Shown here: positions 7,504-64,000 of the stretch, in pieces
Layout of the letters: the number at the start of each line of letters is the position of its first letter
Numbering within the stretch: the stretch's first letter is position 1
DNA from: Spongilla lacustris
Lineage: Eukaryota > Porifera > Demospongiae > Spongillida > Spongillidae
DNA length: 64,000 nucleotides
NCBI GenBank assembly: GCA_949361645.1
Contig: OX442433.1
Coordinates: 7,252,407-7,316,406 of the forward strand
Direction of reading: 5' to 3'
Translations under genes and position numbers: made by a program
The notes under the pieces: generated by a model
Told to the model about the DNA's origin: nothing
Databases searched by the model: none
What the model saw: the letters and a program-made list of their open reading frames with translations, nothing else

Positions 7504-10500
7504 ATGAGAATGATTGGTGTGGCGATCGTTGCGGTGTTGGTAGCATTGGCTTGCGCCAAGAATTCAGCCACTGGCTCGCTCAACTTCCTAGTGCTGGGAG
7601 ACTGGGGCGGCCAGCCTACCTCGCCGTACTACACGACTGCAGAGAAAGACATAGCAGCTGCAATGGGGAAGACTGCCCAAAATGTCGACTCCCAATTCAC
7701 GATATCGGTCGGGGACAACTTTTATGAAAACGGTGTGCAGAACGTCGCCGACCCGAGGTTTGACGAGACGTTTGAGGTAAGTCCACAAGAAGGCACGGGA
7801 CCAGAGGAATGACCCGCCAAGCTAAATTATGATAAATAGTCTCTGGTCTGTACTTTGCGGCGAGGTGTCATGCGGCTTACGACGTTACGCGAAAATGTAT
7901 CTTATTTATACCTCTTTCAACAGAATGTGTTCACGGCTACATCGCTGCAGTCCCGCTGGTATGCGTTGTGCGGAAATCACGATTACTATGGCAATGCCTC
8001 GGCGCAGATTGCGTACACACAGCTCTCGAAGAGATGGTACATGCCCAACTTCTACTACACAGATGTGAGAGGGTAATAATAGTGCGACAGTGACGGGGCA
8101 GCCCCGCCTTTTCTATATTACCGCCGCACATAGCATCACGTGCATACTATACTAGCACATGTACTCAGGGCGTTCCGCTCCGACATGCAGGCGCCGATTG
8201 AATTCACACATTCACACGCACATGTACTGACCACATTGAGTTCAAAGTACGAGGTAATCACATGCGCACACCTCATAAATGCACGCACACAGACCATGAC
8301 CATCCCAGGCACCACCACCACTGTTCAGTTCATCTTCATTGACACTGTCATCTTGTGTGGTGCCACCCATCCAACAAAGAGGTCCCTCCCACCTCCTGGT
8401 CCCCAGTCTCATACCATGGCCGATGATGAGTGGGCATGGATCAATAGCACACTCTCCACCTCTACAGCTGACTGGATCCTCATGTTTGGCCACTATCCAG
8501 GTGAGAGGGAGGAGGCGAGGCGAGGGGGTGGAGGGGGAACAATGCTGAAAAACCAATTCTTCTGTCTTGGTTTCTCAGTATGCTTGTGAATATTCCTCAT
8601 GTTCTCCTCTGGCCCCTTCTCCTCTGGCCCCTCCTCCTCTGGCCCCTCCTCCTCTGGCCCCTCCTCCTCCGGCCCCTTCTCCTCCGGCCCCTTCTCCTCT
8701 GGCCCCTTCTCCGGCCCCTTCTCCTCTGGCCCCTTCTCCTCTGGCCCCTTCTCCTCTGGTCCCTTCTCCTCTGGCCCCTTCTCCTCTGGCCCCTTCTCCT
8801 CTGGTCCCTTCTCCTCCGGCCCCTTCTCCTCCGGCCCCTTCTCCTCCGGCCCCTTCTCCTCCGGCCCCTTCTCCTCCGGCCCCTTCTCCTCCGGCCCCTT
8901 CTCCTCTGGCCCCTCCTCCTCCGGCCCCTTCTCCGGCCCCTTCTCCTCCGGCCCCTCCTCCTCCGGCCCCTTCTCCTCTGGCCCCTCCTCCTCCGGCCCC
9001 TTCTCCGGCCCCTTCTCCTCTGGTCCCTTCTCCTCTGGCCCCTCCTCCTCTGGCCCCTTCTCCTCCGGCCCCTTCTCCTCTGGCCCCTCCTCCTCCGGCC
9101 CCTTCTCCTCTGGCCCCTCCTCCTCCGGCCCCTTCTCCGGCCCCTTCTCCTCTGGTCCCTTCTCCTCTGGCCCCTCCTCCTCTGGCCCCTTCTTCTCTGA
9201 CCCCTTCTCCTCTGGCCCCTCCTCCTCTGGCCCCTTCTTCTCTGACCCCTTCTCCTCTGGCCCCTCCTCCTCTGGCCCCTTCTTCTCTGACCCCTTCTCC
9301 TCTGGCCCCTCCTCCTCCGGCCCCTTCTCCTCTGGCTCCTTCTCCTCTGGCCCCTCCTCCTCCGGCCCCTTCTCTCCTTTTTGTCTTCAGTGTGGTCTAT
9401 AGCAGAACATGGACCTACTCAGCAGCTGGTTGATCAACTTAAACCGCTCCTGATTCAATACGGTGTTAGTGGGTAAGGATGAGGTTAAGTGTATGGCATT
9501 ACAGGGTTAGGTTATGTATGATATTACAGGGTTAAGTTATAAGTTGGCATTACAGGGTTAGGTTATGTATGATATTACAGGGTTAAGTTATAGGTTGGCA
9601 TTACAGGGTACTAGTTAGAGGGAGAAAACTATGTGTGGTGTAACAAGCCAATTTTAACTGTTATTTATTGTGTTCTCTTGTTGGTAAGTTACTTCTGTGG
9701 ACATGATCACAGCCTTCAGTACATCAATGACACTGGCATCAACTACTTTGTGTGTGGGGCTGGGCACCGTACAGAGGAATCTGAGTCGCACCTGGTGAGA
9801 TAGTGGTGGGGGAGGGGTGGATGGTGGGGGTGATGTGGATGGGGAAATGGGGTGGACAGTTGTGGTTTAGTGGAAATTATTATTCCTTGAGAATATACCT
9901 GGGTAAAGAGTTCTGCGATGCCTGAGCAGTAGTACTCAAGGAAGGCATCCAATGGTAACTGAACAAGAGCATAAAAATGTTGCATTTTGAAACTTGTAAA
10001 AAGCACCTCAGACAAATGATCAATGAGGTGCAGTACACGGTAAATGTTGATGTGCTTACCACACCTCCTATACCACCTCCTCTAGGGATGTGCTTACCAC
10101 ACCTCCTATACCACCTCCTCTAGGGATGTGCTTACCACACCTCCTATACCACCTCCTCTAGGGATGTGCTTACCACACCTCCTATACCACCTCCTCTAGG
10201 GATGTGCTTACCACACCTCCTATACCACCTCCTCTAGGGATGTGCTTACCACACCTCCTATACCACCTCCTCTAGGGATGTGCTTACCACACCTCCTATA
10301 CCACCTCCTCTAGGGATGTGCTTACCACACCTCTTATACCACCCCCTCTAGGGATGTGCTTACCACACCTCCTATACCACCTCCTCTAGTGATGTGCTTA
10401 CCACACCTCCTATACCACCCCCTCTAGGGATGTGCTTACTACACCTCCTATACCACCTCCTCTAGTGATGTGCTTACCACACCTCCTATACCACCTCCTC

Positions 10501-13739: not shown

Positions 13740-15427
13740 ATGAGCAGCAGCCTTGTGTTCTCCTTAGACGGGATGGCTACGTCTAATGGAGAATGTAGTG
13801 GGACTAACAGTTACGTTTTGAGTAACCTCGAAGCTATTGGCTGCTCTAGCCTTTTATCTCCCTGCCTGGAAACTTACGGTGGCAACTATTCTTCAAAGAC
13901 CATTGTGCCACAGCTGGATGATCCGTACTACAGCTCTGCTTTCCCTCCAAACAGCCTTCCAGTGTGGAACTTCAGCGCAGCCACATCCACAGATCGGATA
14001 CCTCCGGACACCACCATGTACCAAGGGTGCAAGGTCTGCGGAGACGCTGTTTCAGGCAATCACTTTGGCGTGCCTAGCTGTGACGCGTGCAAGAGCTTCT
14101 TCCGTCGGAGCTTGAGGACCAAATGCCGCTATTCGTGCCGCGCTAATCGCTCGTGCAGTGTAAACTTGCGCACAAGAGGACGTTGCCAGTACTGCCGCCT
14201 CGTGAAATGCCTTGCTGTCGGCATGAAGAAACAAGGTACTACATGTGGGAGTGTGCACGAGCAAGGGCATTGTAAGATGGGCCTAAATGAATATTGTGTG
14301 CGTAAAATAACATGTACATACCACCTAAAAATAATATTATCTTTCACTTCAAACCCGCTTGTAGCAATTCAGAACGAATATATTTCTACGCGTTTTGATG
14401 AGTTCCAGTCACCAAGTCTTCCCACACCTGTTGGGTCCCCATACAACCCCAGCAGCGACCCTTTTTATGCCCTGCCACAGGAATGCCAATTTGATTTAAA
14501 CTTTGGTTCAACATATGACACAAACTATTCCCGAAGTGTGTGTACCTCAGATAACAGTAGTGTTGTGTCATACTCGTCATCATTATCTGGGTCATCATCT
14601 TCTGAACCATCATTTTCCAGGCAGTCCTCCTCCTCCTCTGGACAGTTGTCTTTGGGATCGTCCCCATCTCACTCACCACATTCTGCACAAGAAACACCCC
14701 TGTGGTCTCCTGACATATTCCTTGACGATTCAGATGTTTGGTTGCGGGCAACAAGTGAATATTTAATCGACAAATGTGTGTTAGCTCAAGACCTAGTAAA
14801 GGAGCTAGAAGCTTGTCTCACAATGATGATCCAGTGGTCCATGAAGATACCTGAGTTTAGGAACCTTGGGGAGGAGGAGCAGGTTTGCCTCCTTCGGAAC
14901 AGCTGGTGTGAACAATGCGCACTGCAGTTTGCTGTTTGGAATGCAAGCAAGTCGAGTACCCTTGGTGTTAGGGATGGATGGTCCATCGCACCAGACCAGA
15001 TTGAGGACACCGCGGTGCACCAGATCATGCGCGGTGTGGTGGAGGTCACTTATTGGCTGGAGCACTTGAATGTGGACAGGATGGAGCTAGCCTGCATGAG
15101 AGGAATCATGCTCTTCAATCCAGGTATGCCATGGCAACTGTAATGTGACTGGGTATAATTAAATTTCCTTTCGTAGTTTCTGCTGGTCTCACTCCAGCTT
15201 CAAGAAAAAAGATGGAAGTCTGTCAAGAGCACATCATATCTCTCATGACAAGCCATGCCAGCAGAACTCATGGGGATGTTCTGTCTCAGCAAAGGGCTGC
15301 CAAGTTGCTCTTGCAACTCACACCACTCAAGTGTATCAGCCAAAATGTCATAGTGATCCTGAGGGAACAGCGGGCCCAAGGCACACTGGTAATAGGTGAT
15401 ATCTTTGATGAGCTTGTAGATTTTTGA
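13740..15427 (+). CDS. Nuclear receptor A, HNF4/RXR-like (NR2-type)
   Basis: Ligand-type transcription factor with exons 13740-14235, 14365-15123 and 15177-15427, giving 501 residues. The two-zinc-finger DNA-binding domain spans about residues 97-162: C97/C100/C114/C117 and C133/C139/C149/C152. The P-box is CDACKS instead of the CEGCKG/CDGCKG of RXR/HNF4, and the D-box is RANRS. The spliced sequence after the fingers reads GMKKQAIQNE-ISTR, very like HNF4. A serine-rich hinge leads to the ligand-binding domain with the signature WSMKIPEF...EEQVCLLRNSW and a C-terminal AF-2 helix (IFDELVDF). Intron 1 (129 nt) is in frame and stop-free, so retention would insert 43 residues. An alternative exon 3 acceptor 21 bases downstream also keeps frame. 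Intron positions match receptor B. Confidence 0.9.
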
Positions 15428-18190: not shown

Positions 18191-20375
18191 ATGTGCGACA
18201 ACCCTTTCCCTGATTTCAGTACGGAGGGGAACCCGCCCTGCGCAGCGGACTCAACAACAGCTGACTATGGAACCCCCGGCAACGGGGAAATGGACCAATG
18301 GTACATAGATCCTCCATTGGCATTGCTTGGAAGTAGCGACTTGATCTATGGTCCCGGCTTCACAGAGAGATCGCCGTACTACTCTAGCGGTATAGACTAC
18401 CACCCACCGTACATCGAAGGCTGCGGCTACTTTCAGCCTCCCTTGAAGCACGACGGGTCCTATCTAGCGCCACCCGCAACTTCATACGCGTACCCACCGG
18501 TGACAGAAACGAATATAAAATCGACGACACCCGCCCAGCCGGCTGCTACCAAAGAGCAGCCGGAACGCCTCGAGGCCCGTTCCGCCCAGAGCGCACCGTC
18601 TGCGGTGCGGTCCTATTGCAAGGTGTGCGGGGACACGGCCTCCGGCAACCACTTTGGAGTGCTGAGCTGCGAGGCTTGCAAGAGCTTCTTCCGCCGTAGC
18701 ATCAGGGCGAATGCCCGCTACGCATGCCGATGGACGCGCAACTGCGTTGTGGACCGGTTCACGAGGAACCGGTGCAAGTACTGCAGACTGGAGAAGTGCG
18801 TGCTCCTCGGGATGAAGAAAGAAGGTGATAAGAACCGTAGAACTACGGGAGCAGCTTTGCACCTTCTTCAGGGGTGGGGGAGGGAAGGGGGTTGGGAGAA
18901 GGATGTGTCTTCATTCATTGGGTAAGGGTTTTATCCTGAGAAAGATGTGTTCAGTGTGCACATTGTTATAATTTCCGTGGGTGAGGCTTGAGACACTTCC
19001 TTTTTGTGCAGCTGTACAGGAAGATCGCCTGATCCTTGGGTACAGTCTGATGTCAAAGATGGCCGCCAGCCAGGCCCAGGTCCACCTCCCGCCTCAGTTC
19101 CACACCTCCATTCACCGAGTCCTCTCGCAAACTGCTCACGATTTTCAGGTGAAAACGTGTCTGGCTAGGTGGGATGAAGGAATTAGCAGTGACCATGTGG
19201 ACAGCACCAGTGGTAGGAGCACTCTGAAGAATCCTTCTAATATCCTGAATACAGTGGAAGACCCTGTGGCACTCTGTAACCGCTTTCCAATCACCATGGC
19301 AACTTTACTCAATGTTATTATTGAACCAAAGTCAAAGGACCTGAGAGCGATGACTCATAGTGTGGGCATCAAGGATGTTGTTGAAACATTGCAGCTGTGT
19401 TTCACCAAGGTGATCCACTGGTCAGCACAGATCCCCTCGTTCACACACCTTGGGCTGGATGACCAGGTCAGACTTCTAAAGACCAGTTGGTGCGAGCAAT
19501 GTGTGCTTCTCTTTGCTGTGGACAACACTGTTGTGCCAAAGACTGCCTTTGTGCTTGAGGGTTATCTGTGTGAGCGTGATCAAGTGGAGGACCCTATGGT
19601 GACCGAGATTATTGATAAAATTATCGGTGATGTCACATATTGGCTCAACTACCTGCACGTTGATGATGCTGAGCTGGCCTGCTTGAGAGCTCTGCTTCTA
19701 TTCAATCCAGGTGAGCTAGGGGAAGGGAGGGCTATGGTGAAGGAGGGGTAGGGGGAGGAGGGCTAGGGGGAGGAGGGCCAGGGGGAGGAGGGCTAGGGGG
19801 AGGAGGGCTAGGGGAAGGAAGGCTAGGGGGAGGGGAGGAGGGCTAGGGGAAGGAGGGCTAGGGGGAGGAGGGCTAGGGGGAGGAGGGCTAGGGGAGGAGG
19901 GCTAGGGGGAGGAGGGCTAGGGGAATTCTAGTGCAGGGCTATTGGAAGCTAGTGGAAAGGACTAGTGGAGTACGAACAAAAGTACTGGTACTTTGATATG
20001 CAAAATAGATGGGAGCTCTAGGTCAAACTAGCTCCTATTTATCAGTCTGATATAACTCTGTAGGGCCATTTCTAAAATAAAAAAGTACATGAACATGGGA
20101 CACATGTACACACTTTGTGCTTGCTAGGTGCCAGGTGCCTCAGTCCTACTGCAATGCGTGCTGTGGAGCTGTACCAGGAGCAGATACTGGCAGGTCTGGG
20201 AGCACACATCACTAAGATTCATGGAGTGGCCTCAACCAGGCTAGCCAAGCTAGTCCTTCAGCTAGGTTCAATCAAGGCAATCAGCCATGAGATGCTTCAA
20301 GGAATGGTAGTCCATCAGAAGCAAGGGACTGTGTCGATGGGTGATACGTTTACTGAACTGATGCAGTTCAATTGA
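18191..20375 (+). CDS. Nuclear receptor B, HNF4-like (NR2-type)
   Basis: Second nuclear receptor in tandem with receptor A. Exons are 18191-18824, 19012-19710 and 20128-20375, giving 526 residues. Intron positions and phases are the same as in receptor A. The amino-terminal domain is Pro/Tyr-rich. Zinc fingers use C143/C146/C160/C163 and C179/C185/C195/C198. The P-box is CEACKS, a mixture of the NR3-like EACK and COUP-like CKS forms. The D-box is RWTRN, and NCVVD...NRCKYCRLEKC followed by GMKKEAVQEDR resembles HNF4 closely. The ligand-binding domain has the signature WSAQIPSF...LDDQVRLLKTSW, and a final AF-2 helix TFTELMQF ends the protein. Intron 2 starts with a G-rich repeat at the donor. 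Receptors of this class bind DNA as homodimers or heterodimers; ligands here are unknown. Confidence 0.9.
19711..19925. repeat. G-rich repeat at receptor B intron 2 donor
   Basis: About 14 units of GGGGGAGGAGGGCTA and variants start right at the GTGAGCTAGGGG donor and fill the first 215 bases of the intron. Confidence 0.9.
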
Positions 20376-21470: not shown

Positions 21471-24400
21471 ATGATGAGGTGGGTGTTGTATGCCGCGCTT
21501 CTAGCGGCCTCCTGCTGCTACTGTGTTTGGGCAAAACCCGCTGGCACTGGGACCCTGGACTTTTTGTTAGTGGGTGACTGGGGTGGGCAGCTCCTGCCGC
21601 CCCACTACACCACGGCCGAGAAGGATGTGGCGGCTTCGATGGGGGGAACCGCTGCTGCAATTGCTTCACAGTTCACAATAGGCCTGGGCGACAACTTCTA
21701 CGAGTTTGGTGTAACCAGTGTGGATGATCCCAGGTTCCAATCAACGTTCGAGGTACGCCCCTGCCACGGATGACTCATTAACTAATAATAATCAGTTGCG
21801 AGGGCGCGCGTTTTGCAGAACGTGTTCACGGCTAGCTCGCTGCAGTCCCGCTGGTATTTGGTATGCGGGAACCACGATCACTATGGTAACGCCTCTGCAG
21901 AGGTGGCGTACACACAGCTCTCGAAGAGATGGTACATGCCCAACTTCTACTACACAGAGGTGAGAAAGTAACAGACAATTTGTTGCATATATAGGCCTAC
22001 ATGTACCAAGTTATAGTGGTCTGCCTGAATGCATGCTCAATCGTACGGTACTTGGGGTGTGTGTGTAGTACGTGGGTATACATCACATGCATACTGGTGA
22101 ATGGTATGTTAAACCACACACACACACACAGACCATGACCATCCCAGGCACCACCGCCACAGTTCAGTTCATCTTCATTGACACCATTCTCATGTGCGGG
22201 ACAACTGACCCACAAAAGAGGTCCCTGGCCCCCTGGGGTCCCCAGTCCCAATATTTGGCTGATGAGGAGTGGGCATGGATCAATGAAACCCTACAACAGT
22301 CCACAGCTGACTGGATCATCATGGGTGGGCACTATCCAGGTACATGTGGATGGGGAGGAGGAGGTAGTGGGTGGTAATGCGTTCTAAAAGGGTCTGTTAA
22401 GGCGTATAGAATAGTTAGTGAGCTTTACGGTACGTAGCCTTATACCCTCCCTCCCTCCATCCAATTCATTTGGTGCTGTTTTGAATATGCAGAGCTTCCT
22501 TGTGTAAGAGGCAATCGAACAAGCCTCCCTGTGGGCTACTGATACAGCACTATTCCTTTATCAAATGCATGCAGGTGGGCATTAAATAGGGAGACATGAA
22601 GAAGACTGCACTCTTTGAGATCCATTGTGTGCAGTAGTGCAGCAGAATATTGTGCCAGCAAAGTTATACGCCTGACAGTATGTTGGCTTTGGATTACTGA
22701 CAAAATTACTATCGGATCGTGGGGTGTATATATTGGTGATGACACTGGGTACTTAGTAAGGCGTGTGTGGATGGCTGGCTACACCTTCAAATGCTTACAC
22801 CTTACACTTTTTGCAGTGTGGTCAATAGCTGAGCATGGACCTACAGCTTTGATGGTTCAGAACCTAAGACCTTTGTTGATGCAGTATGGAGTCTCTGCGT
22901 GAGTATACAGTCCCCAGTTCTTTCCCCCAAGTATACAGTCCCCAGTCCTTTCCCCCAAATATACAGTCCCCAGTCCTTTCCCCCAAATATACAGTCCCCA
23001 GTCCTTTCCTTTCCCCAAGTATACAGTCCCCAGTCCTTTCCCCCAAGTACATGTCCTCCCCAGTCCTCTCCCCAACTAGGCAGCCCCTCCCCTTTTTCAC
23101 ACTTGTAAGCACCCCTAATGGACCCCTTTCATGATAGAGTTACCATGGTGATCACCATTCTCTCTGGTAGGCAATAAACTTTAAATTCCATTCACAAGCA
23201 TGTGCTCTCTCTTTGTGGTAACAAGCAGTATTTTACCAAGCTTAATACGACATTATCCAGCAAGTTGCCTACCAGGAGATTTCCACTCATTACCATGGCA
23301 ACTATTCATCATGTGTCCATACTAATGGCCCCATAAGATTAATTTATAAGGTCCAACCTTTTCTCTTCCTCCAGGTACTTCTCTGGTCATGATCACAGCT
23401 TGCAGCATATCAAGGAGGACAGCAGTGATGTCAACTACTTTGTGTGTGGGGCTGGCCACATGACTGATGACTCAAAGGCACATGCAGTAAGAGCCTTCGT
23501 ACCCCCCCCCCCCCCCCCCCCTCCCTGTGCATGTCAACTATTAAATAATTTTGTTCTGTATGAGACCTGGGCCTGGAGTGGTTCTGACCTGGGCCTGGCC
23601 TGGTGTGGTATTGGTTTGGGTCAAATGTTGTACTGGTCTGGGGACTGACAGGGCCTCTGCTTCCTCTCCCCCTTACAGGCAGACATTCCTTCTGGCTCTC
23701 TGAAGTATCACTATGCGCCTTCTGATCTCTTCGATAGATATGGCGGCTATGCCTCTGTGTCTGTATCTCCATCCACCATGACTGTAACATACTATGATGC
23801 CTCAGGTACGTACCACACATGTACACTAATGATGCCTCAGGTACGTACCACACATGTACACTAATGATGCCTCAGGTATGTACCACACATGTACACTAAT
23901 GATGCCTCAGGTACGTACCACACATGTACACTAATGATGCCTCAGGTATGTACCACACATGTACACTAATGATGCCTCAGGTACGTACCACACATGTACA
24001 CTAATGATGCCTCAGGTACGTACCACACATGTACACTAATGATGCCTCAGGTACGTACCACACATATGTACACTAATGATGCCTCAGGTACGTACCACAC
24101 ATGTACACTAATGATGCCTCAGGTACGTACCACACATGTACACTAATGATGCCTCAGGTACGTACCACACATATGTATACTAATGATGCCTCAGGTACGT
24201 ACCACACATGTACACTAATGATGCCTCAGGTACGTACCACACATGTACACTAATGATGCCTCAGGTACGTACCACACATGTACACTAATGATGCCTCAGG
24301 TACGTACCACACATGTACACTAATGATGCCTCAGGTACGTACCACACATATGTACACTAATGATGCCTCAGGTACGTACCACACATGTACACTAATGATG

Positions 24401-34050: not shown

Positions 34051-34645
34051 TTAAGATGGTGGTGCTTGATTGCAATCACCCAGCTTTTTCAAAAATGCCA
34101 CCACCAATCGCTCGACATCTTTAGCCCTCATGTTGCTTGTAGCAACCACATCCTTGTGGTTAGGCTGAGGAGTGTGTGAGTCAGGATCCTGAATGACCAT
34201 GTTGGTGATGAGTGAGAGACCTGGGGGAGGGGGGGGGAGGGGGGAAGAAATGGGAACACTTGATGGGAACAATCATGGGTGTAGGCTGGCTCATCAGTTA
34301 GATGAGCACAGCTAAGGGCCCACAGCTAAGGGCCCACAGCTAAGGGCCTTAGACAGATAGCCAGCTGCATTGGTTCAAACACTTACCAACGACCCTGATT
34401 CCACAGTGTCTTGCTACTATCACCTCTGGGACTGTACTCATACCAACAGCATCTGCTCCCACCATCCTCAGGAATCTGGCCTCAGCAGGGGTCTCATAGG
34501 ATGGTCCAGACAGGTACACATACACACCAGCTTTGTAATAGTCATCCATCTGCAGCTCATGTGCTGTGCGGGACATCAGCACCCCCAACTCCCTGTCATA
34601 AGCAGCTGTCATGGCCGGAAACCGTTCGCCAAACCTTGCCATGCA

Positions 34646-34684
<39 letters not shown>

Positions 34685-36849
34685 TGTGTGTGTGTGTGTG
34701 TGTTGTGTGTGTGTGGTGTGTGTGGTGTGTGTGTGTGTGGGGGGGTGGGATAACAACACTTCTTGAATACACAAGCACAGGTAGCAAGTAGCATAAAGTT
34801 TAGGGCTTTGTTGCTATCAAACTAGGAAGCAAAGATAATCAGTTTCATGTTCAACTTGCCAGACCATTCGGTTTAAGAGAACAAAACAGCTCCTTCTGCT
34901 CTTGTGTAACAAGACCCATCAGATATATGGTGAAGTAATAATTGCCTTGTAGCCACCAAACACCCCACTGTTCACCAACTTGTTGCACTTCACCTCCTTT
35001 TCGAGTTAGTATAATTTCTTAACTGAAATACATGACTACCCAGAATCTGGGTAATGGGCTAGCACCTACCAGACCCCCTAACTTTAATATTGGGAAAAGC
35101 AAAATGGCATTTGCATTACGTAAGGTCAACAAGCACAAAACATGTGTTGCTAAGCAGTGATATATGGTGTTGCTAGGCAGTGGCTGCATATTATGCCTTT
35201 TTGGAACACAGTAAGGCTAAGTTTGCAAGATACAGTGTAGGAACATACATCTGCTGCACCATTAGGGCCATGGACACACGCTGTGTGCCAACTCCTTTTT
35301 AAAAACCTGCTCTGAGTTTGTTTCGCTTCTTGATATGCGCTGCAGCTGTCGTGCTTTTTCTGAGAAAGTTAGCCCAAGGATTTTCAGATCTCCATTCTAG
35401 CGATATGTACACTATTACCTGGCCTTGTTCCCAGGCCATTTTATGGTGCTGCTAGGCAATGTAACAGCTGGAGCTAACCTCATTGTGGTCTCCAGCTCTA
35501 AACTATTTCAGTGATTGCATACAGTATTTTTAAAGAACAATTCCTAAAAACAAAAACTAATGAAACAAGTAATAAAAAACATTCTTTATGAGAAAGTAGT
35601 GGTATGTAAACATAGAACAGTTTGAAGGCAATGGTGGTGTAAAAAGGAAGGAAACAAGGGTTCAATGATACGAAAACTCCTATTTAGCAACAATGTACTA
35701 TAAAAGTGCTAAATATAGGACTTATATGTTTTTCGTATCATTCAACCCTTATTTCCTTCCTTTTTACACCACCATTGCCTTCAAATCCTATATGCACAAC
35801 AACATTGTGTGCTTTGCTGACCTCTCCTCATTCTCCCCCACCAGTGGGTGGTGCCCAGTCATCCCCACCAGGTTGATGTGGTCTTTAATCAACACGATGT
35901 CACCATTGCTGAAGGCGGTGTTGAGGCCGCCAGCTGCATTGGTCACTATCAGTGTCCTGACTCCTAGCAACTTCATCACCCTCACAGGCATAGTGACCTG
36001 GATGGGGAAGAGGGCAGACATCCATCACTTTCCTTATAAGGGCATCATCGTCCAGGAGGAGTGGCTCCGATTACCTTCCATGGGGTGTGGCCTTCATAGA
36101 AGTGGAACCTCCCCTTCATGCACACAGTTGGCACACCAGACAGGTAGCCAAACACCAGCTCACCAGCGTGTCCCTTGACTAAAAGAGAGAGGAAGAGAGG
36201 GTTTTAAAAGAAGGGTAGGGTAGGCAGTGTAAACATGTGGTACATGGCTGTAGTTAACCACTATTCAGTCTATTGGTAGGGGGAAAAAATGTATCTGAAC
36301 AAATTCATCTAGAAGGTGGTGGGGAGGAGGAGTTATAGTGTATACACCATTGGTAACTAACACTAACTGACGCATGAGTCATGACCTACAGACCCAAAGA
36401 TGAGACCCATGCAGTTCTTCTTCTTTTTGTCCGTTATTACAGCACACTGACAACATAAAAATCATAAAATGCACACATGCATCATGCATGCAAAAATCCA
36501 ACTGCTTTAACAAGAGGAACGGTTACATGTAAACCACAGATATTTAATAGTGCGCCTATGCACAGCACATACCATTGCAAGTTGGAAAATTCGGAATATC
36601 GTGGTAGGGTAGTGTCACAATGGGGTGCTCCTTTTGCAGCTGGTCGGCCAGACCTCCGAGGCCCGATCCGCATATTACTCCGATTTCTGGGACTATGCTG
36701 GTCTGTGCTCTAATGAACGTCACAATGACTTCCAGCTGCTCGTAACACAGTTTCTCTGCTGGGCTGCGTAGTACGGAAAGGAGCATATATAAGGGTCGAG
36801 GGTCGAGGGTCATAAGGGTACCTTACCTTGGTTGTATGTGGTTGGACAT
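34051..36849 (-). CDS. Purine nucleoside phosphorylase, copy 2 (PNP2)
   Basis: Second animal-type PNP with the same six-exon plan: 36849-36827, 36763-36573, 36178-36075, 35997-35822, 34634-34387 and 34220-34051. These give 912 nt and 303 residues. Exon sizes 3, 4 and 5 (104, 176 and 248 nt) equal those of PNP1. The protein starts MSNHIQP and keeps [48 protein letters not shown] and SLITN, so it should be active on inosine and guanosine. Exon 2, the first half of exon 5 and exon 6 are well diverged from PNP1, whereas exons 3-4 with their intron and the end of exon 5 are nearly identical. The exon 4 donor is the weaker GTCAGC. Intron 4 contains a (TG)n tract and a long hairpin. Confidence 0.9.
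34647..34745. repeat. (TG)n microsatellite next to the PNP2 exon 5 acceptor
   Basis: About 100 bases of TG repeat starting roughly 12 bases from the exon 5 boundary, so on the transcript it is a CA-rich stretch leading into the acceptor. Confidence 0.9.
35621..35785. mobile_element. Long hairpin (foldback element) in PNP2 intron 4
   Basis: The left arm starts TTTGAAGGCAATGGTGGTGT and runs through AAGGGTTCAATGATACGAAAA. The right arm is its reverse complement with few changes and ends CACCACCATTGCCTTCAAA. Arms are about 70-79 bases with a loop of about 17. It ends only about 36 bases from the exon 4 donor. No coding capacity. Confidence 0.8.
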
Positions 36850-37351: not shown

Positions 37352-38179
37352 ATGAGTTCGAGTCTCTGGACTTCAGCAAAGAGAGCGATGTATTGTGCAC
37401 TCCACCAACCTCCTTTGACTAAAGTGTTCGTCTTCATGCTTGTTGTGGTGCTTGGGTCACTGCTCTGTTCTCTGTCCTTGGTACCCGCAAGCACCTTCTT
37501 CTCTGACAAGAACAACTCTTTGAACGTCTATTTAGCAAAGTACTGTTGGGGGTGGACCTTGCTGTTTCTGTTCCCACTGGTCTTTCTCTCCTCCTTCATG
37601 TACACCGCCTGTGATAAATTGCAAATGACTCGCCACTTGGGACGCTTGCTTTTTTGCCACGTCTTTTGGTATCTGGTGACCAGCGCGTTTGACGCCATAA
37701 ACCATCGAGTTGGATCGTGCTCAGCAGACAACAGCTTGGAACATTCCGTTTGCGTTAGGAAGGGTCACATATGGATAAGTTTTGATATCTCGGGCCACGT
37801 CTTTCTGCTCGTCTACTGCATTTTGGTCATATCGGAAGAGTGCGCTTTAGTTAGAAAGGATGTGTGGGAACGTTACAAGGACATTTTGGAAAGCAAATCC
37901 TGCATGCTTCCCGTGGAAAAGTACAAGCGACTACGTTCAGTGCAAAAATTTGTCACTCCCGTGTTTGCTCTTTTTGAGATATGCAGTTTGGTACTTATCA
38001 TCCTGTGGACCACGCTAGTGGTGGCATCATCGCTATACTTCCACCATTTCTTAGAGAAAGTGGTAGGTTGCTTGTGTGCCTATATCTTCTGGCGTGTTAC
38101 GTACGCACTGACGGAACTGAATTGGACCTACCTACCATGCCCAACCCGCCACGGAGTACTTAACCCTCTGGAAACTTAA
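37352..38179 (+). CDS. FITM2: FITM2-like fat storage-inducing transmembrane protein
   Basis: Single-exon gene for a 275-residue multipass endoplasmic-reticulum protein of the FIT family (human FITM2 has 262 residues). The family acts as an acyl-CoA diphosphatase needed for lipid droplet budding. About six hydrophobic segments are visible (near residues 25-45, 65-85, 98-112, 146-160, 203-228 and 236-250). The first catalytic histidine lies in FDISGHVFLL (H149) and the second in SLYFHHFLEK (H231 or H232). The spacing between them is larger than in human FITM2 because of a charged insert around residues 168-198. The start is the ATG at 37352; the frame is open a little upstream but has no other ATG. 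The gene is convergent with the Dok-like gene. Confidence 0.85.
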   Translation: MSSSLWTSAKRAMYCALHQPPLTKVFVFMLVVVLGSLLCSLSLVPASTFFSDKNNSLNVYLAKYCWGWTLLFLFPLVFLSSFMYTACDKLQMTRHLGRLLFCHVFWYLVTSAFDAINHRVGSCSADNSLEHSVCVRKGHIWISFDISGHVFLLVYCILVISEECALVRKDVWERYKDILESKSCMLPVEKYKRLRSVQKFVTPVFALFEICSLVLIILWTTLVVASSLYFHHFLEKVVGCLCAYIFWRVTYALTELNWTYLPCPTRHGVLNPLET

Positions 38180-56022: not shown

Positions 56023-58723
56023 ACGTATGTATGTATGTTTGCATGTAATTAATGTCATATGTACACGTTTGACACTATGCTTGGGTGACATACTTTGATC
56101 TTTGATAGATGCTCATGTGGCTGTTCAGTGTGTTTGTTTTGGGTGTGTGTGTTGTGATTGTCTAGGTTGTACAATACCCAGACAGTCTCCTTTATGTGTC
56201 TCTGATTCTACTGATCCTGCCCTTTGTTGGATGCCAAGGCCAGAATGGCTACCTCCTCTGTCACCTCACTCCCTTCCACTCTCCTCCATTCTCTCTCTCC
56301 CTCCTCTCTCCCACTCAGCAGTGCTGAGCATACACAACACATACCACATTGCTCTGTTGTGCGGTGCACTGGCCATGCATGTCCAACAGCTGTGTGTGAG
56401 CAGCTGCCGCTTCCCTCCCCTTAGGACTGAGGTGCCCCCTGTGCTCCAAGGAGCTGACCTCTACTGAGCTGGAGCAGCACATTGTTGTCTGCCTGGCCAG
56501 AACCAAAGTTCTTTACAATGGTAGGTGTGCCCAGAGCTCTATAGAATGGTGGATGTGCATATCTGGTCTCTTTGATGTGGATGAATGGACCGATGTGTGG
56601 GTGTGGTGGTGTGAATATGAACAGTGAGAGGACATCTGTTAGGTGATAGGGGTGCTGGGAGAGGTGATAAGAGTGATGTTGGGGAGAGGTGATAGGAATA
56701 GTGATGTTGGGGAGAGGTGATAGGAATAGTGATGTTGGGGAGAGGTGATAGGAATAGTGATGTTGGGGAGAGGTGATATGAGTGATGTTGGGGAGAGGTG
56801 ATAGGAGTGATGTTGGGGAGAGGTGATAGGAGTGATGTTGGGGAGAGGTGATAGGAGTGATGTTGGGGAGAGGTGATAGGAGTGATGTTGGGGAGAGGTG
56901 ATAGGAGTGATGTTGGGGAGAGGTGATAGGAGTGATGTTGGGGAGAGGTGATAGGAGTGATGTTGGGGAGAGGTGATAGGAGTGATGTTGGGGAGAGGTG
57001 ATAGGAGTGATGTTGGGGAGAGGTGATAGGAGTGATGTTGGGGAGAGGTGATAGGAGTGATGTTGGGGAGAGGTGATAGGAGTGATGTTGGGGAGAGGTG
57101 ATAGGAATAGTGATGTTGGGGAGAGGTGATAGGAGTGATGTTGGGGAGAGGTGATAGGAGTGATGTTGGGGAGAGGTGATAGGAGTGATGTTGGGGAGAG
57201 GTGATAGGAGTGATGTTGGGGAGAGGTGATAGGAGTGATGTTGGGGAGAGGTGATAGGAGTGATGTTGGGGAGAGGTGATAGGAATAGTGATGTTGGGGA
57301 GAGGTGATAGGAATAGTGATGTTGGGGAGAGGTGATAGGAATAGTGATGTTGGGGAGAGGTGATAGGAATAGTGATGTTGGGGAGAGGTGATAGGAATAG
57401 TGATGTTGGGGAGAGGTGATAGGAGTGATGTTGGGGAGAGGTGATAGGAGTGATGTTGGGGAGAGGTGATAGGAGTGATGTTGGGGAGAGGTGATAGGAG
57501 TGATGTTGGGGAGAGGTGATAGGAGTGATGTTGGGGAGAGGTGATAGGAGTGATGTTGGGGAGAGGTGATAGGAGTGATGTTGGGGAGAGGTGATAGGAG
57601 TGATGTTGGGGAGAGGTGATAGGAGTGATGTTGGGGAGAGGTGATAGGAGTGATGTTGGGGAGAGGTGATAGGAGTGATGTTGGGGAGAGGTGATATGAG
57701 TGATGGTTGGTGTGGTGAGGTGAGCAAACCACACCCACTTTATCAGTGTTAAATGATGTACACCCCTCTCTGTGCACAGTTGACACACTTCGTTTTGATG
57801 CTGGCGAATGTACCATATGTTTGGATGATATGAGAATAGGTAAGAGTATGAATGGTGTGGGATGGGGTGGGGTGGGGCGATGTGTGTGGTGTGTATGGTG
57901 TGGGGTGGGGCGATGTGTGTGGTGTGTATGGTGTGGGGTGGGGCGATGTGTGTGGTGTGTATGGTGTGGGGTGGGGCGATGTGTGTGGTGTGTATGGTGT
58001 GGGATGTGTATGGTGTGGGGTGGGGTATGAATGATGTGAGATGTGTATGGTGTGTATGTGGAGTGTGTATGGTCATATATGGGGGGGGGGGGGGGGGGGT
58101 TAGTGATGCTATAGCAAGGTCTGTGACCAAGCTGTTTTGTTTCTCATTTACAGGAGACAAGATTGCTAGACTGCCATGTTTGTGCGTATACCACATCAGG
58201 TAAGTCTATTTGGGTTATGACTTGTAAGTTGTGTTTTTGGAAGTTAAACGTTACATATATAATGTGTTGAGGCTACAGATGCAAGGTGATTGTTGGCCAG
58301 CTTCTCCAGGGTTAAAAAATCATATTCATAGAAAGTTGCCATGATTTTATACTAAATACATAATGTTGGCCTCAATCTGGATGCACAGGCTGTGCACACA
58401 GTATGGATGTTAGCACACATGTGCAGTTTGTGTGTTAAGACTGGCGGTGTGCACATGGCAACTTTCAGGTGACCCTTTTCTTGTCAAAATAGTTTTGAGA
58501 ATGATAATGCTCAATTATTTCTTGTGTTTGAGCACCAGGAAATAGAAAGCCTTTCTATTTGGAGTGACAAGTTGCCAGAAAGATTTGCTGATATGTATGT
58601 CTTATATGGTACATGTATGCCTTATATGGTATACTATTTTCCACCCCACAAAGGTGTATAGAGCAGTGGCACAAAGTGAATCCAACCTGTCCTGTTCATC
58701 CTGAATCTGAATCTACTTCATGA
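55359..58723 (+). CDS. ZNRF: ZNRF-type E3 ubiquitin ligase
   Basis: Exons are 55359-55716, 56425-56520, 57780-57839, 58154-58199 and 58654-58723, giving 630 nt and 209 residues (human ZNRF1 227, ZNRF2 242). The start MGGRQSRG provides the myristoylated glycine of this family, which targets membranes. A basic Ser/Pro-rich region precedes a zinc finger (CPLCSKELTSTELEQHIVVC) and a C-terminal RING (GECTICLDDM, then GDKIARLPCLCVYHIRCIEQ, then NPTCPVH). ZNRF proteins attach ubiquitin to membrane and endosomal targets. The start was chosen at the MGG because it is the first ATG and matches the family. Intron 2 contains a 25-bp minisatellite of about 1.1 kb, and intron 3 starts with a GT-rich repeat at its donor. 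Confidence 0.92.
55963..56038. repeat. (GT)n and (ATGT)n microsatellite in ZNRF intron 1
   Basis: GT run followed by GTAT/GTAC tetranucleotides. Confidence 0.9.
56632..57715. repeat. 25-bp minisatellite in ZNRF intron 2
   Basis: About 42 units of GATAGGAGTGATGTTGGGGA plus GAGGT, with GGAATAGTGATG variants three bases longer. The long minus-strand SYHLSPTSL frames are repeat artefacts. Confidence 0.96.
57840..58060. repeat. GT-rich repeat at the ZNRF exon 3 donor
   Basis: Four to five units of GGTGTGGGGTGGGGCGATGT plus GTGTGGTGTGTAT start close to the donor GTAAGAGTATGAATG. Confidence 0.9.
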
Positions 58724-59148: not shown

Positions 59149-60166
59149 CTATAGTTCACCTTGTGTCACGGTGTGGAATGATATCTGAAGATTGCTTCCA
59201 GCATCCAGCATTGGTTGGAGGCTGGCATCATTGTCAGAATGGTGGAGATGGTCGTGCGAAGACGTGTCATCTGGATGTGCACAGAGAGAACAAAACTTTG
59301 AAGGGCCTCTCATACATGCCTGGTCATTTCAAAACTTACCAACTTCTCCCTCCTCCCCCTCCCCTTCATCCTCTTCATCAGCGTCATTGCCACGTTCCTC
59401 TCTCACATGATCCCCAGTGTGTGGTGACAGCTCACCATCAGTCTCAGTTCTGTGTTCAATGACGTAGCCACTCTCACTATCTGATGTGATCACAATGTGT
59501 CCAGGGATAGATGGGGAGGAGGAATCTTCAAAGTTATCAAACCATGACTTTCCAGCACAATCGTTCTTCTGCACAATGCTGCTGGACTCAGCTGCAGCTG
59601 ACCCCCGGGGGAAGTCAGCAGAGTCAGCTGACCCCCGAGGAAAGTCAGCAGAGTCTGCTGAGGCATCTAGATGCTCGATGGAAATAGTCTCCAGTGTGGA
59701 CAGCTCCTTCAGGTTAAGCTGTAAAGGTTCTAGTTTGGGTGGCCAGTCGTGAAATTTTATGTCCAAAGGTTCCAACCTAGGAAGACCTCCTGAGCTGTTA
59801 AGTGGAGAGCTAGCATACCTGGCCTTGTCCATGCAAGGTGCACCAAGGGCTATGGCACCTCCCACACCTTCAGTAGCCTCCTCCCCAGACTCATGCTGCC
59901 GATTGTGCTCCCCATCTAAGCACTCGAGAGTAATCTTACACCCGTTTGACACCTTCTGAACCATGCCTTTGGTGCTTTTGCAGATACATTTTATCACGGG
60001 GTTGATGAGGGGATCGAATGACAGACCGCTCATCTGTTTGCAGATGGAGCCAACATCTAGCAGCTTGCCCTCGTGTTGTGCTAATGCATCTAAAGGGTCA
60101 CCTCCAATTAATGCCCGGCAGTCTTCGAGATTGGCCTCGCATTCGTTATGTGCATCAGTCAGGCAT
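59149..60166 (-). CDS. 3' exons of an unrecognised acidic-tailed protein
   Basis: The exon 60166-59340 (acceptor TTCTACACAG, entering phase 2) joins 59270-59149 (acceptor TGCACATCCAG) in frame to a TAG stop. It encodes about 315 residues. The first part is cysteine-bearing (CLTDAHNECEANLEDCRAL, CKQMSGLSFDPLINPVIKCI, CKITLECLDG). The middle is leucine-rich (KLEPLQLNLKELSTLETI) with an immediate repeat of SADSADFPRG. The end is acidic (DADEEDEGEGEEGEV) and then His/Asp-rich. I do not recognise the family. Upstream exons are missing; 60700-60593 (-) is a candidate (ISYWLVQTSGRPFL...) with good splice sites, but it does not join directly by phase. Confidence 0.55.
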
Positions 60167-60175
60167 CTGTGTAGA

Positions 60176-60179
<4 letters not shown>

Positions 60180-60221
<42 letters not shown>

Positions 60222-60238
60222 ATGTGTGTGTGTGTGTA
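60180..60238. repeat. (TG)n microsatellite
   Basis: TG run directly upstream (gene sense) of the acceptor at 60167. Confidence 0.9.
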
Positions 60239-60344
60239 AGTGTGCACATTAGTATTTATAGATAAATATGCACTTGCTTCAGTTTCCATGGTTACACTGC
60301 AATCTCAAAACTATGTACAGGGATCAAAGAGCTCCAGTGTCTGG

Positions 60345-61115: not shown

Positions 61116-61659
61116 CCACCATCATCACTGACTGCTCATATTGGATCAGATAGTGACCAGTAGCAAATTTGAGTTTTAAGCTCAATAACAAACACACAAC
61201 AACTTTTGAATGTGCTTAATCAGATAAGCGACAGGAAAAGCTAAAATTACAATAGTTTTAAAAATGTGCAAAAATACAATTCTCGAACAGTGGTATTATT
61301 ATAATAAATGGTCTGCATGTGAGGAATAAAGTATTGTGCTTCAGTTCACTGCATACTAACATTACATGAATGCTGGTCCTATGGGGTCACTGCATACTAA
61401 CATTACATGAATGCTGGTCCTATGGGGTCACTGCATACTAACATTACATGAATGCTGGTCCTATGGGGTCACTGCTTGCTCCCCAGATTACATTATATGC
61501 CTCAAACATTTGGCAACTTAAAATCAATGATGCCAAATCAATGATGCTCATGCATATTCATATATCTAATTAATCTCTAACACAGTCCTGCTCTATGGCC
61601 TTATCTGAACTGCTGATCTTCTATACATCAGTCAATGGCATGAATGAAGGAAGTGCCCA

Positions 61660-61880
61660 GAGCCTCCCAGAGCTGCCCAGAGCTGCTCAGGGCTGCCCAG
61701 AGCTGCTCAGGGCTGCCCAGAGTTGCTCAGGGCTGCCCAGAGTTGCTCAGGGCTGCCCAGGGCTGCTCAGGGCTGCCCTGAGCAACTCTGGGCAGCCCTG
61801 AGCAACTCTGGGCAGCCCTGAGCAGCTCTGGGCAGCCCTGAGCAGCTCTGAGCAGCTTTGGGCAGCCCAAAGCTGCTCAG
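61660..61880. repeat. Palindrome built of 20-bp tandem units
   Basis: The left arm consists of GCCCAGAGCTGCTCAGGGCT-type units. The right arm is the inverted form (AGCCCTGAGCAACTCTGGGC). The centre lies near 61776. The two arms are over 90 bases each and could form a cruciform. Both strands read a PELLRAAQ-type repeat peptide. Confidence 0.93.
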
Positions 61881-62021: not shown

Positions 62022-62108
62022 ACACACACACACACACACATACACACACACACACACACACATACACATACATACACACACACACATACACACATACACA
62101 CACACACA

Positions 62109-62143
<35 letters not shown>

Positions 62144-62155
62144 CACACGCACACA
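62022..62155. repeat. (CA)n microsatellite adjoining aroA
   Basis: CA runs with occasional T, ending three bases before the stop codon triplet of aroA (minus strand), so it is the immediate 3' sequence of that gene. Confidence 0.92.
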
Positions 62156-62157
62156 CA

Positions 62158-63480
62158 CTAACTGTGGCAAACAGAAAAAAAAGTTTTGAAATATTCAGGA
62201 TAAGTTTTCTTGACGCAGTCTGGGTTATCAATGCACACAGAAGCCCCTATGGGGTTAAATGCAGCGAGTGAGAAACACATGGCCATACGGTGGTCACCAT
62301 ACGTAGTGATTACAGCAGGTCTCCAAGCCTTGGGCGGGGTGATGTGGAGGTAGTCTGACCCTTCCTCCACACCAGCACCAAGTTTTGTAAGTTCTGTTGC
62401 CATGGCTACTATACGATCACACTCCTTTACACGCCAAGTGGCAACACCCCGTAGCAAAGTGGGGCCATCAGCATACAAGGCCAAGACAGCCAATGTCATA
62501 GCCACATCCGGCATGTGGCTCACATCCAAGTCCACACCCTTCAGAGGCCACGCCCCACGGCACACCACAACCCTACCTGGCTCTAATCTGACATCAGCAC
62601 CCATATCTGCAAGAACCTCACCGAAAGCAATGTCGCCCTGAATCGATTGCGACCCCACCCCATCCAGTACTATCCCCTGCCCCTTGCTGGCTGCTAGGGC
62701 ACCTGCAGCCATAAAGTAAGACGCTGAAGAGGCATCGCCTTCCACGAGATAGTCTCCTGGACTGCTGTATTGGGCGTTATTTGGGATGCAATAAACCCCG
62801 TCTACGTGTTCCTCAACACGAATTCCGAAGCTTTCCATCACACGAAGCGTCATATAGACATACGGTCTGGACACGAGATGACCGACAACTTGTATTCGAA
62901 TATCACCCATGTTGGAAACAAGGGGCAGAGCCATGAGAAGAGAGCTCAAGAACTGGCTGGACACATCTCCCCGTACCTGGATGACTTCGGGCAGGCGGAC
63001 ATACCCTGGTTGTATGCGCAAGGGAGGGCATCCCTCCTCTCCAAGGTACTCCAGCTTGCAGCCCACCACACGAAGCGCGTCAACGAGATCGGCGATCGGT
63101 CTTTCGTGCATACGGTGCGCACCTTCTAGAATGACCTCCGCTTCCGTGGTAAGCGCAAGGACGGCCACAAGCGGGCGCATGGCCGTTCCTGCATTGCCGA
63201 GAGACAGGCGAGTGGGTCGCCGAGCAGAAAGTCGTTTGTCGTTACGTACAACAGTGATATTTGCATCACTACGAATCTCGCACCCCAGACTTATCAGGGC
63301 CTCTTTCAAAACGCTGGTGTCTTCGGCTTCCAACACATTGGCGATCCGTGTTTCTCCGTTGCTTAGAGCAGCTAGCAACAAGGCACGGTTGGAAATGCTC
63401 TTTGAGCCTGGCAACAGAACCGTTCCTCCAGCTGTCTTCAAAGGTGGAAGGCGTAGTGTGTAACCGTAGGAAATATTCAT
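62158..63480 (-). CDS. aroA: EPSP synthase (3-phosphoshikimate 1-carboxyvinyltransferase), bacterial class I type
   Basis: Intact, intronless 440-residue enzyme that joins phosphoenolpyruvate to shikimate 3-phosphate, step six of the shikimate pathway. Motifs fit class I AroA (E. coli type, about 427 residues): LPGSKSISNRALLLAAL (K27), LGNAGTAMRP (95-103, with glycine and proline as in glyphosate-sensitive enzymes), HRMHERPIADLVDAL, GDVSSQFLSSLL, SHMPDVAMTLA (D325), WRVKECDRIVAMATEL (K352, E353), YGDHRMAMCFSL, and a C-terminal lysine in VKKTYPEY. All key residues are kept, so it is probably active. Animals lack this pathway, and no other pathway gene is in the window. The start is the only plausible ATG before the first motif. 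No mitochondrial or plastid leader is seen. Neighbouring sequence is repeat-rich and eukaryotic in style. Confidence 0.95.
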   Translation of the reverse strand: MNISYGYTLRLPPLKTAGGTVLLPGSKSISNRALLLAALSNGETRIANVLEAEDTSVLKEALISLGCEIRSDANITVVRNDKRLSARRPTRLSLGNAGTAMRPLVAVLALTTEAEVILEGAHRMHERPIADLVDALRVVGCKLEYLGEEGCPPLRIQPGYVRLPEVIQVRGDVSSQFLSSLLMALPLVSNMGDIRIQVVGHLVSRPYVYMTLRVMESFGIRVEEHVDGVYCIPNNAQYSSPGDYLVEGDASSASYFMAAGALAASKGQGIVLDGVGSQSIQGDIAFGEVLADMGADVRLEPGRVVVCRGAWPLKGVDLDVSHMPDVAMTLAVLALYADGPTLLRGVATWRVKECDRIVAMATELTKLGAGVEEGSDYLHITPPKAWRPAVITTYGDHRMAMCFSLAAFNPIGASVCIDNPDCVKKTYPEYFKTFFSVCHS

Positions 63481-64000
63481 TTACTCGTTATCTCGTATCC
63501 GGACCCACACATCCCTACAACAAGAATTTCCTAATTAACGACTTTCAGTTAAACCAAAGGCAAGACGCCATGATGCTTATGTGCCTGTGCTTATACATAA
63601 CAGGCTATACCTAACAGCCTGCTATCACACAACACATACGTCATTTAACAAAATAATTTTTTTACATGCGTGTAACAGGATAAATGCACACAAGAGGAAA
63701 AATAGTAATACATGTACATAAATAATTATTACACATATAGATATGTACAATACAATACATAATATGAGGAACACAATGCAAGAAACTAAATACTAAGCTA
63801 CATGTGTGTAACACATACATGTAACACACAATTTGCACTGGTGTAATTAAGCCCATGTAGAAAAATTTACAGCAATGGAACTGTGTTAAAGATTTTCAAG
63901 CCTCCTCCACAGGGCTCTACACTGTACCAATGGCCCCCCTTCTCCACAAGACTCTACACTGTACCAATGGCCCCCCTCCTCCACAGGGCTCTACACTGTA
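63481..64000. other. Upstream of aroA
   Basis: No bacterial operon partner follows. AT-rich DNA leads to a 37-bp tandem repeat at 63905-64000 (CTCCACAGGGCTCTACACTG plus TACCAATGGCCCCCCTT), which continues beyond the window. Directly before the aroA ATG a TCTCGTATCCGGACCC stretch resembles the MITE terminus seen elsewhere. Confidence 0.5.

What the first reader, a model, noticed from the sequence alone, without database searches (positions are those of the whole stretch)
62158..63480. Intact bacterial-type EPSP synthase in an animal chromosome
The sequence shows a complete intronless class I AroA with all catalytic residues, while the recognised animal genes of the window, except FITM2, are intron-rich. 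Metazoa are known to lack the shikimate pathway. The flanks are minisatellites and microsatellites, not bacterial operon DNA, so simple contamination is unlikely inside one continuous window. Horizontal transfer from a bacterium is the simplest inference. A lone pathway enzyme could work on a symbiont's intermediate or have a new role.
Basis: partly seen in the sequence, partly recalled or inferred. Interest (0 to 1): 0.8.

Follow-up and report, generated by a model that had tools for sequence, protein, structure and literature searches.

The report
Bacterial aroA gene inherited by animals
An animal chromosome carries an intact gene for EPSP synthase, an enzyme of a pathway that animals are thought to lack; it came from a beta-proteobacterium, and a second related animal species has it in the same neighbourhood, so it is an old inherited gene transfer and not contamination.

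Summary
Window 62158-63480 (-) is an intact 440-codon EPSP synthase ORF (Pfam E 1.5e-113; model TM about 0.9 to bacterial EPSPS). The window is animal DNA: two nuclear receptors and FITM2.

Among 8,000 scored proteins (120 listed) one other, P0002 (80% identical), is close. A contig of its length, 1,202,026 bp, also carries homologues of two host genes of the window: FITM2 (75%) and the gene 2 kb from aroA (49%). Linkage in two species makes contamination or chimera very unlikely.

Trees put the pair beside fused AroA-Cmk proteins of Burkholderiales, on a long stem. No Cmk part was found. The two animal proteins differ mostly where bacteria vary (Fisher p 1.6e-6), so selection has acted. The 3' half is CpG-depleted, the 5' half is not.

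Most likely it still makes EPSP from shikimate-3-phosphate. Substrate source, transcription and other pathway genes are untested: the genome search did not complete (17 tries). None of eight poly(A) hexamers occurs within 1.5 kb. The host phylum is not known; a sponge is my guess.

The parts
62158..63480 (-). aroA: intact intronless EPSP synthase gene, 440 aa
63488..63556 (-). 5' leader, non-coding here (in-frame stop just before the ATG), similar to the DNA implied by the N-terminal extension of the second animal's protein P0002; the upstream limit is approximate
   Evidence: alignment score 39.4 against at most 31.4 in 300 shuffles and 26.4 in 300 pieces of the window
62681..63560 (.). CpG-rich 5' part of the gene (CpG o/e 0.75-1.1 in 220-nt bins) in a CpG-poor window (0.38); the 3' half of the gene is depleted (0.48)
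62022..62158 (.). AC microsatellite directly after the stop codon
61654..61854 (.). about 200-bp near-palindrome of 10/20-bp units downstream of aroA
59332..60165 (-). exon of a host gene next to aroA; homologue P0147 lies on a contig of 1,202,026 bp, the length of the one that encodes P0002; a longer homologue (P0148) has RING and B-box domains
37352..38179 (+). host FITM2 gene; homologue P0123 lies on a contig of the same length, 1,202,026 bp
13740..15143 (+). host nuclear receptor ORF (zf-C4 and ligand-binding domain): marks the window as animal

Best explanation
A betaproteobacterial aroA, from a relative of the Comamonadaceae/Sphaerotilaceae that carry a fused AroA-Cmk protein, entered the nuclear genome of an animal ancestor (a sponge is my guess). 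Only the AroA part is present. It has been inherited through at least one speciation, has drifted towards host-like base composition and is kept by selection as a working EPSP synthase (shikimate-3-phosphate + PEP -> EPSP + phosphate). Shown: intact ORF, host linkage in two species, tree placement, constraint on sites. Inferred: transcription, catalysis, and that the substrate comes from other transferred enzymes or from ingested or symbiotic bacteria.
For: Of the 120 listed of 8,000 scored proteins only P0002 (80%, contig of 1,202,026 bp) is close; the other listed rows are bacterial-type proteins at 56-59%, all but P0097 listed with both AroA and Cmk domains. FITM2 homologue P0123 (75%) and neighbour-gene homologue P0147 (49%) are on contigs of the same length, 1,202,026. 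Window + P0002 form a 100/100 clade inside betaproteobacteria, beside the fused clade at 100/98, rooted on 3 gammaproteobacteria; placing them outside has p-AU 0.029. 126 of 136 bacterial near-invariant columns are kept; window and P0002 differ at 9 of 136 conserved against 74 of 292 other columns. Third-position GC 0.517, host ORFs 0.515 and 0.575. CpG falls from 0.97 in the 5' half to 0.48 in the 3' half (difference 0.49), against a mean difference of -0.11 and a highest of 0.26 in 21 bacterial homologues. Model pLDDT 89.8, TM 0.88-0.90 to ligand-bound bacterial EPSPS.
Against: No transcript evidence. None of eight poly(A) hexamers within 1,500 nt downstream. P0002 has L in place of S beside the substrate lysine (position 26). 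Neutral simulations keep a frame without stops in 58 of 2,000 runs at 89 differences and 340 of 2,000 at 45, so intactness alone is weak evidence. A third related animal (contig 583,984 bp, P0146) shows no aroA among the rows listed. Codon usage of AT-richer Burkholderiales fits almost as well as the host's (-1.239 against -1.213 per codon; in the 5' half slightly better, -1.275 against -1.294). Whole-gene CpG o/e (0.74) equals FITM2 (0.73) but one of 13 bacterial homologues is lower (0.69; others 0.81-1.24), and FITM2 shows no CpG fall (0.65 then 0.82). Exclusion of a place outside the betaproteobacteria is mild. Other shikimate genes could not be sought.
Confidence: 0.8

Rival explanations
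1. Contamination or a chimeric assembly: bacterial DNA joined by mistake to animal DNA.
For: The gene lies among long tandem repeats, where assemblies can go wrong. Earlier shikimate genes of Nematostella were later drawn into the contamination dispute (passages of PMC7003083 and PMC4557100).
Against: The same linkage with two host genes in a second species, a conserved non-coding 5' leader, no bacterial neighbours found, CpG depletion in the 3' half, 59% best full-length bacterial identity.
Confidence: 0.03
2. Real transfer, but the protein has a changed role (another substrate or a non-catalytic function).
For: Long stem of 1.16-1.32 changes per site; 34 residues shared by both animals and absent from 85 bacterial rows; animals are held to lack the pathway that supplies S3P.
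Against: S3P- and PEP-binding positions are kept, 23 of 24 checked, and the stem may lie partly in an unsampled donor lineage.
Confidence: 0.15
3. Real transfer, but a neutral relic on its way to decay, not expressed.
For: None of eight poly(A) hexamers nearby; no aroA listed for a third related contig; a frame without stops is not very improbable under neutrality.
Against: Differences between the two animals avoid conserved sites; AroA is as conserved between the species (80%) as FITM2 (75%).
Confidence: 0.1

Closest known systems
Fused AroA-Cmk of Burkholderiales (NCBIfam NF008816 / PRK11860)
   Same: Best NCBIfam match by score over the AroA half (595 bits); sister clade in the trees
   Different: Cytidylate kinase half absent; score below that family's cut-off of 943; 56-59% identity; lies in animal DNA
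EPSP synthase of Escherichia coli (PDB 1g6s)
   Same: Fold, length, 23 of 24 checked positions
   Different: 49.6% identity over 415 residues; host is an animal; N336 is T
Shikimate-pathway genes reported in Nematostella vectensis (Starcevic et al. 2008; seen only as cited in other papers)
   Same: Claim of bacterial shikimate genes in a non-bilaterian animal
   Different: Those were traced to a Tenacibaculum-like flavobacterium (passage in PMC4237138) and drawn into the contamination dispute; here the donor is betaproteobacterial and host linkage is conserved in two species
Shikimate enzymes annotated in the coral Acropora digitifera (shikimate kinase, AroKB, quinate dehydrogenase; passages of PMC3750612)
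   Same: Shikimate-type enzymes in an animal's predicted proteome
   Different: EPSP synthase is not named there (no occurrence in the held 300,000 of 311,543 characters)

Membership tests
EPSP synthase (AroA) | Full-length EPSP synthase domain above curated cut-offs | tested here: met
   PF00275 380.1 bits (cut-off 22.8), TIGR01356 428.7 bits (cut-off 287.25)
EPSP synthase (AroA) | Catalytic and substrate-binding residues | tested here: met
   23 of 24 positions equal E. coli; N336 is T (at least 98% of 85 bacterial rows: S); list of positions recalled
EPSP synthase (AroA) | Two-domain EPSPS fold | tested here: met
   pLDDT 89.8; TM 0.88-0.90 to ligand-bound bacterial EPSPS; (model only)
EPSP synthase (AroA) | EPSP synthase activity | not testable with these tools
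   needs an assay
Fused AroA-Cmk (PRK11860) | C-terminal cytidylate kinase domain | tested here: not met
   ORF stops after the AroA domain; 595 bits against a cut-off of 943; no Cmk remnant in the window with the Cmk parts of 2 proteins and the fused ORFs of 5 loci
Horizontally transferred animal gene | Linked to host genes on one contig, also in another species | tested here: met
   (that the three proteins share one contig is inferred from its equal length, 1,202,026)
Horizontally transferred animal gene | Phylogeny nested in bacteria | tested here: met
   (rooted); only proteobacterial rows, no plant or algal rows; plant chains score lower than the best bacterial chains
Horizontally transferred animal gene | Transcribed in the host | not testable with these tools
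   no RNA data

The most novel reading that the evidence does not exclude
An animal lineage keeps a working step of the shikimate pathway in its own chromosomes, either as one of several transferred genes that let it make chorismate, or as a lone enzyme completing a pathway shared with its bacteria.
Probability: 0.35. Interest if true: 0.85.

Novelty: new member of a known kind. Interest (0 to 1): 0.66.

Why it matters
Absence of the shikimate pathway from animals underlies their need for aromatic amino acids and the use of its enzymes as herbicide targets (established knowledge). The best-known earlier claim of such genes in an animal (Nematostella) was drawn into the contamination dispute. 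A case with conserved host linkage in two species gives a clean test of whether an animal can carry out a shikimate step, and of how host and symbionts might divide a pathway.

Tried and rejected
Contamination or chimera: rejected on cross-species linkage. Algal or plant source: not favoured, since plant chains score 371 bits or less against 404 for the best bacterial chain, and Burkholderiales-type proteins 533 (different searches); no plant or algal rows were put in the trees. Plasmid records: 81 with a match, 40 listed, the best 49% identical. Remnants of the bacterial operon: none found (199 ORFs of 120 aa or more, and Cmk pieces, from 5 of 80 loci and 2 proteins, against the window at E 1e-3; every hit lies over aroA, on either strand).

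Ten paper searches, in open-licence PMC papers only: no listing shows a report of this gene, but most listed papers were not opened. Passages seen by find: PMC4237138, PMC4784904, PMC13342648, PMC10542158, PMC7003083, PMC4557100, PMC3750612 and PMC3018139; PMC6005172 gave only a reference-list passage and PMC6040629 no occurrence; all other papers: search listing only. Starcevic 2008 and Artamonova 2013 are not held.

The genome-wide search for EPSP synthase copies was sent 17 times and never answered; searches for aroB, aroC, aroD, aroE and aroK were to follow and were never sent. Whether the host has further shikimate genes is open.

Full report
What is there. The ORF at 62158-63480 on the minus strand runs from ATG to TAG without interruption and encodes 440 residues. 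It is a full-length EPSP synthase: PF00275 at 1.5e-113, TIGR01356 above its cut-off, 49.6% identity to E. coli EPSPS over 415 aligned residues with 23 of 24 checked positions identical, and a model (pLDDT 89.8) that superposes on ligand-bound bacterial EPSPS at TM 0.88-0.90. The residue list is recalled; the alignment is.

The surroundings are animal. ORFs at 13740-15143 and 18191-19751 carry zf-C4 and nuclear-receptor ligand-binding domains, which by established knowledge occur only in animals; FITM2 lies at 37352-38179 and a purine nucleoside phosphorylase fragment at 34352-34774. CpG is strongly depleted over the window (o/e 0.38), as in a methylated genome. No call names the host; a sponge is my guess and nothing more.

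A second species has the same linkage. In one search, 8,000 candidates were scored and 120 listed. Apart from the window's own protein (632,211-bp contig) one entry, P0002, is 80% identical over the full length and lies on a contig of 1,202,026 bp; the other 118 rows are bacterial-type proteins at 56-59%, where named mostly Polaromonas. The FITM2 search returned 23 proteins, among them P0123 (75%) on a contig of 1,202,026 bp. The search with the host exon next to aroA (59332-60249, residues 30-305) returned 6 proteins, among them P0147 (49%), again on a contig of 1,202,026 bp. That these are one contig is inferred from the equal length. FITM2 is 24 kb and the exon about 2 kb from aroA here; positions on the other contig are not known. 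P0144, on the 632,211-bp contig, differs from the window's exon by one residue and a repeat length, so that contig may be another haplotype or assembly (inference).

Donor. Trees of 87 rows (85 bacterial: 69 of the 80 loci and 16 of the listed proteins) and of 45 rows rooted on three gammaproteobacteria (33 loci, 7 listed proteins) join the window and P0002 at 100/100 and place them beside the Comamonadaceae/Sphaerotilaceae fused AroA-Cmk clade (100/97 and 100/98). That this clade excludes the animals has 95/87 and 93/87. Keeping the animals outside the betaproteobacteria is rejected only mildly (p-AU 0.029). The stem is long (1.16-1.32), so the exact donor is not resolved. The rows were chosen by similarity to the query, and no plant, algal or other bacterial phyla were included. 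The best identities in whole genomes were 57% (Ramlibacter, full length) and 61% over residues 89-438 (truncated Polaromonas locus L046, 80 of 593 relatives kept).

Age and selection. 34 residues are shared by both animals and seen in none of 85 bacterial rows; 126 of 136 near-invariant bacterial columns are kept in the window and 123 in P0002. Window and P0002 differ at 9 of 136 such columns and at 74 of 292 others (Fisher 1.6e-6), so the sites that matter in bacteria were still protected in the animals. Identity of AroA between the species (80%) is like that of FITM2 (75%). An intact frame alone is weak evidence: 58 of 2,000 neutral runs to 89 differences and 340 of 2,000 to 45 had no stop, indels ignored.

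Assimilation. Third-position GC is 0.517, host ORFs 0.515 and 0.575, against 0.35-0.95 in 80 bacterial loci, so this measure alone does not exclude an AT-richer bacterium. Codon usage fits the host better than GC-rich Comamonadaceae; AT-richer Burkholderiales fit nearly as well (slightly better in the 5' half), and the host model was trained on the very genes it was compared with. CpG o/e is 0.97 in the 5' half and 0.48 in the 3' half; in 21 bacterial homologues of the fused clade the difference averages -0.11 and never exceeds 0.26. Over the whole gene it is 0.74, within the range of 13 bacterial homologues (0.69-1.24) and equal to FITM2 (0.73). A CpG-rich start and a depleted body are what a gene transcribed in a methylated animal genome would show, but FITM2 itself does not show it (0.65, 0.82). 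The P0002 reading frame extends 24 residues upstream; the DNA it implies resembles the window's non-coding leader better than any of 300 shuffles or 300 window pieces.

How it probably works. With substrate-binding and catalytic positions kept, the simplest reading is that the protein still transfers enolpyruvyl from PEP to shikimate-3-phosphate. Only about eight residues precede the first residue aligned to E. coli EPSPS, so I expect a cytosolic enzyme; no targeting predictor was run. Where S3P would come from is the open question: further transferred genes, or bacteria taken up or housed by the host. Against expression: none of eight poly(A) hexamers occurs within 1,500 nt downstream on the coding strand.

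What is known. Shikimate genes were reported in Nematostella and traced to a Tenacibaculum-like bacterium (passage in PMC4237138); that case was drawn into the dispute over contamination (passages in PMC7003083, and PMC4557100). The coral Acropora digitifera has annotated shikimate kinase, AroKB and quinate dehydrogenase, but EPSP synthase is not named in the held text (PMC3750612). The HGT study of Amphimedon does not mention EPSP synthase, aroA or shikimate in its main text, nor does the 2026 compendium of metazoan transfers. My ten searches listed no report of an animal aroA of betaproteobacterial origin, within open-licence PMC papers.

Limits. The genome-wide search failed 17 times. No DNA of P0002 was available, so dN/dS was not computed. 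P0145/P0146 belong to a third related animal (contigs of 39,866 and 583,984 bp); no row among the 120 listed shows a contig of those lengths, so loss, absence, a relic or a contig end there remains open.

Mended against the calls: the N336 statement, the 61% partial locus, the plasmid search, the coral paper, the CpG range of bacterial genes, the codon result for the 5' half, the second neutral simulation, and the ground for the sponge guess.

Noticed in passing
1377-2452 and 8282-9377, also 22115-22341: Duplicated segments (70% and 79-80% identical); the first two carry a short coding stretch that reads the same by eye and looks like an acid phosphatase exon (name recalled; no Pfam hit for the second copy, the first was not scanned).
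   Followed up: partly
13740-15143 and 18191-19751: Two nuclear receptor genes side by side, with P-box regions CDACKSFFRR and CEACKSFFRR that I recall as unusual.
   Followed up: partly
56657-57710: 25-bp minisatellite, 41 copies, 97% matches, which gives long meaningless ORFs.
   Followed up: no
2001-3000: Stretch made almost only of C and T on the + strand (GC skew -1.0, AT skew -0.99).
   Followed up: no
61654-61854: About 200-bp near-palindrome, 87.6% self-complementary.
   Followed up: no
59332-60249: P0144 on the 632,211-bp contig differs from the window's ORF by one residue and a CA-repeat length: perhaps another haplotype or assembly of the same species.
   Followed up: partly
contig of 583,984 bp (P0146): A third related animal has the gene that neighbours aroA, but no row listed shows a contig of that length.
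   Followed up: no
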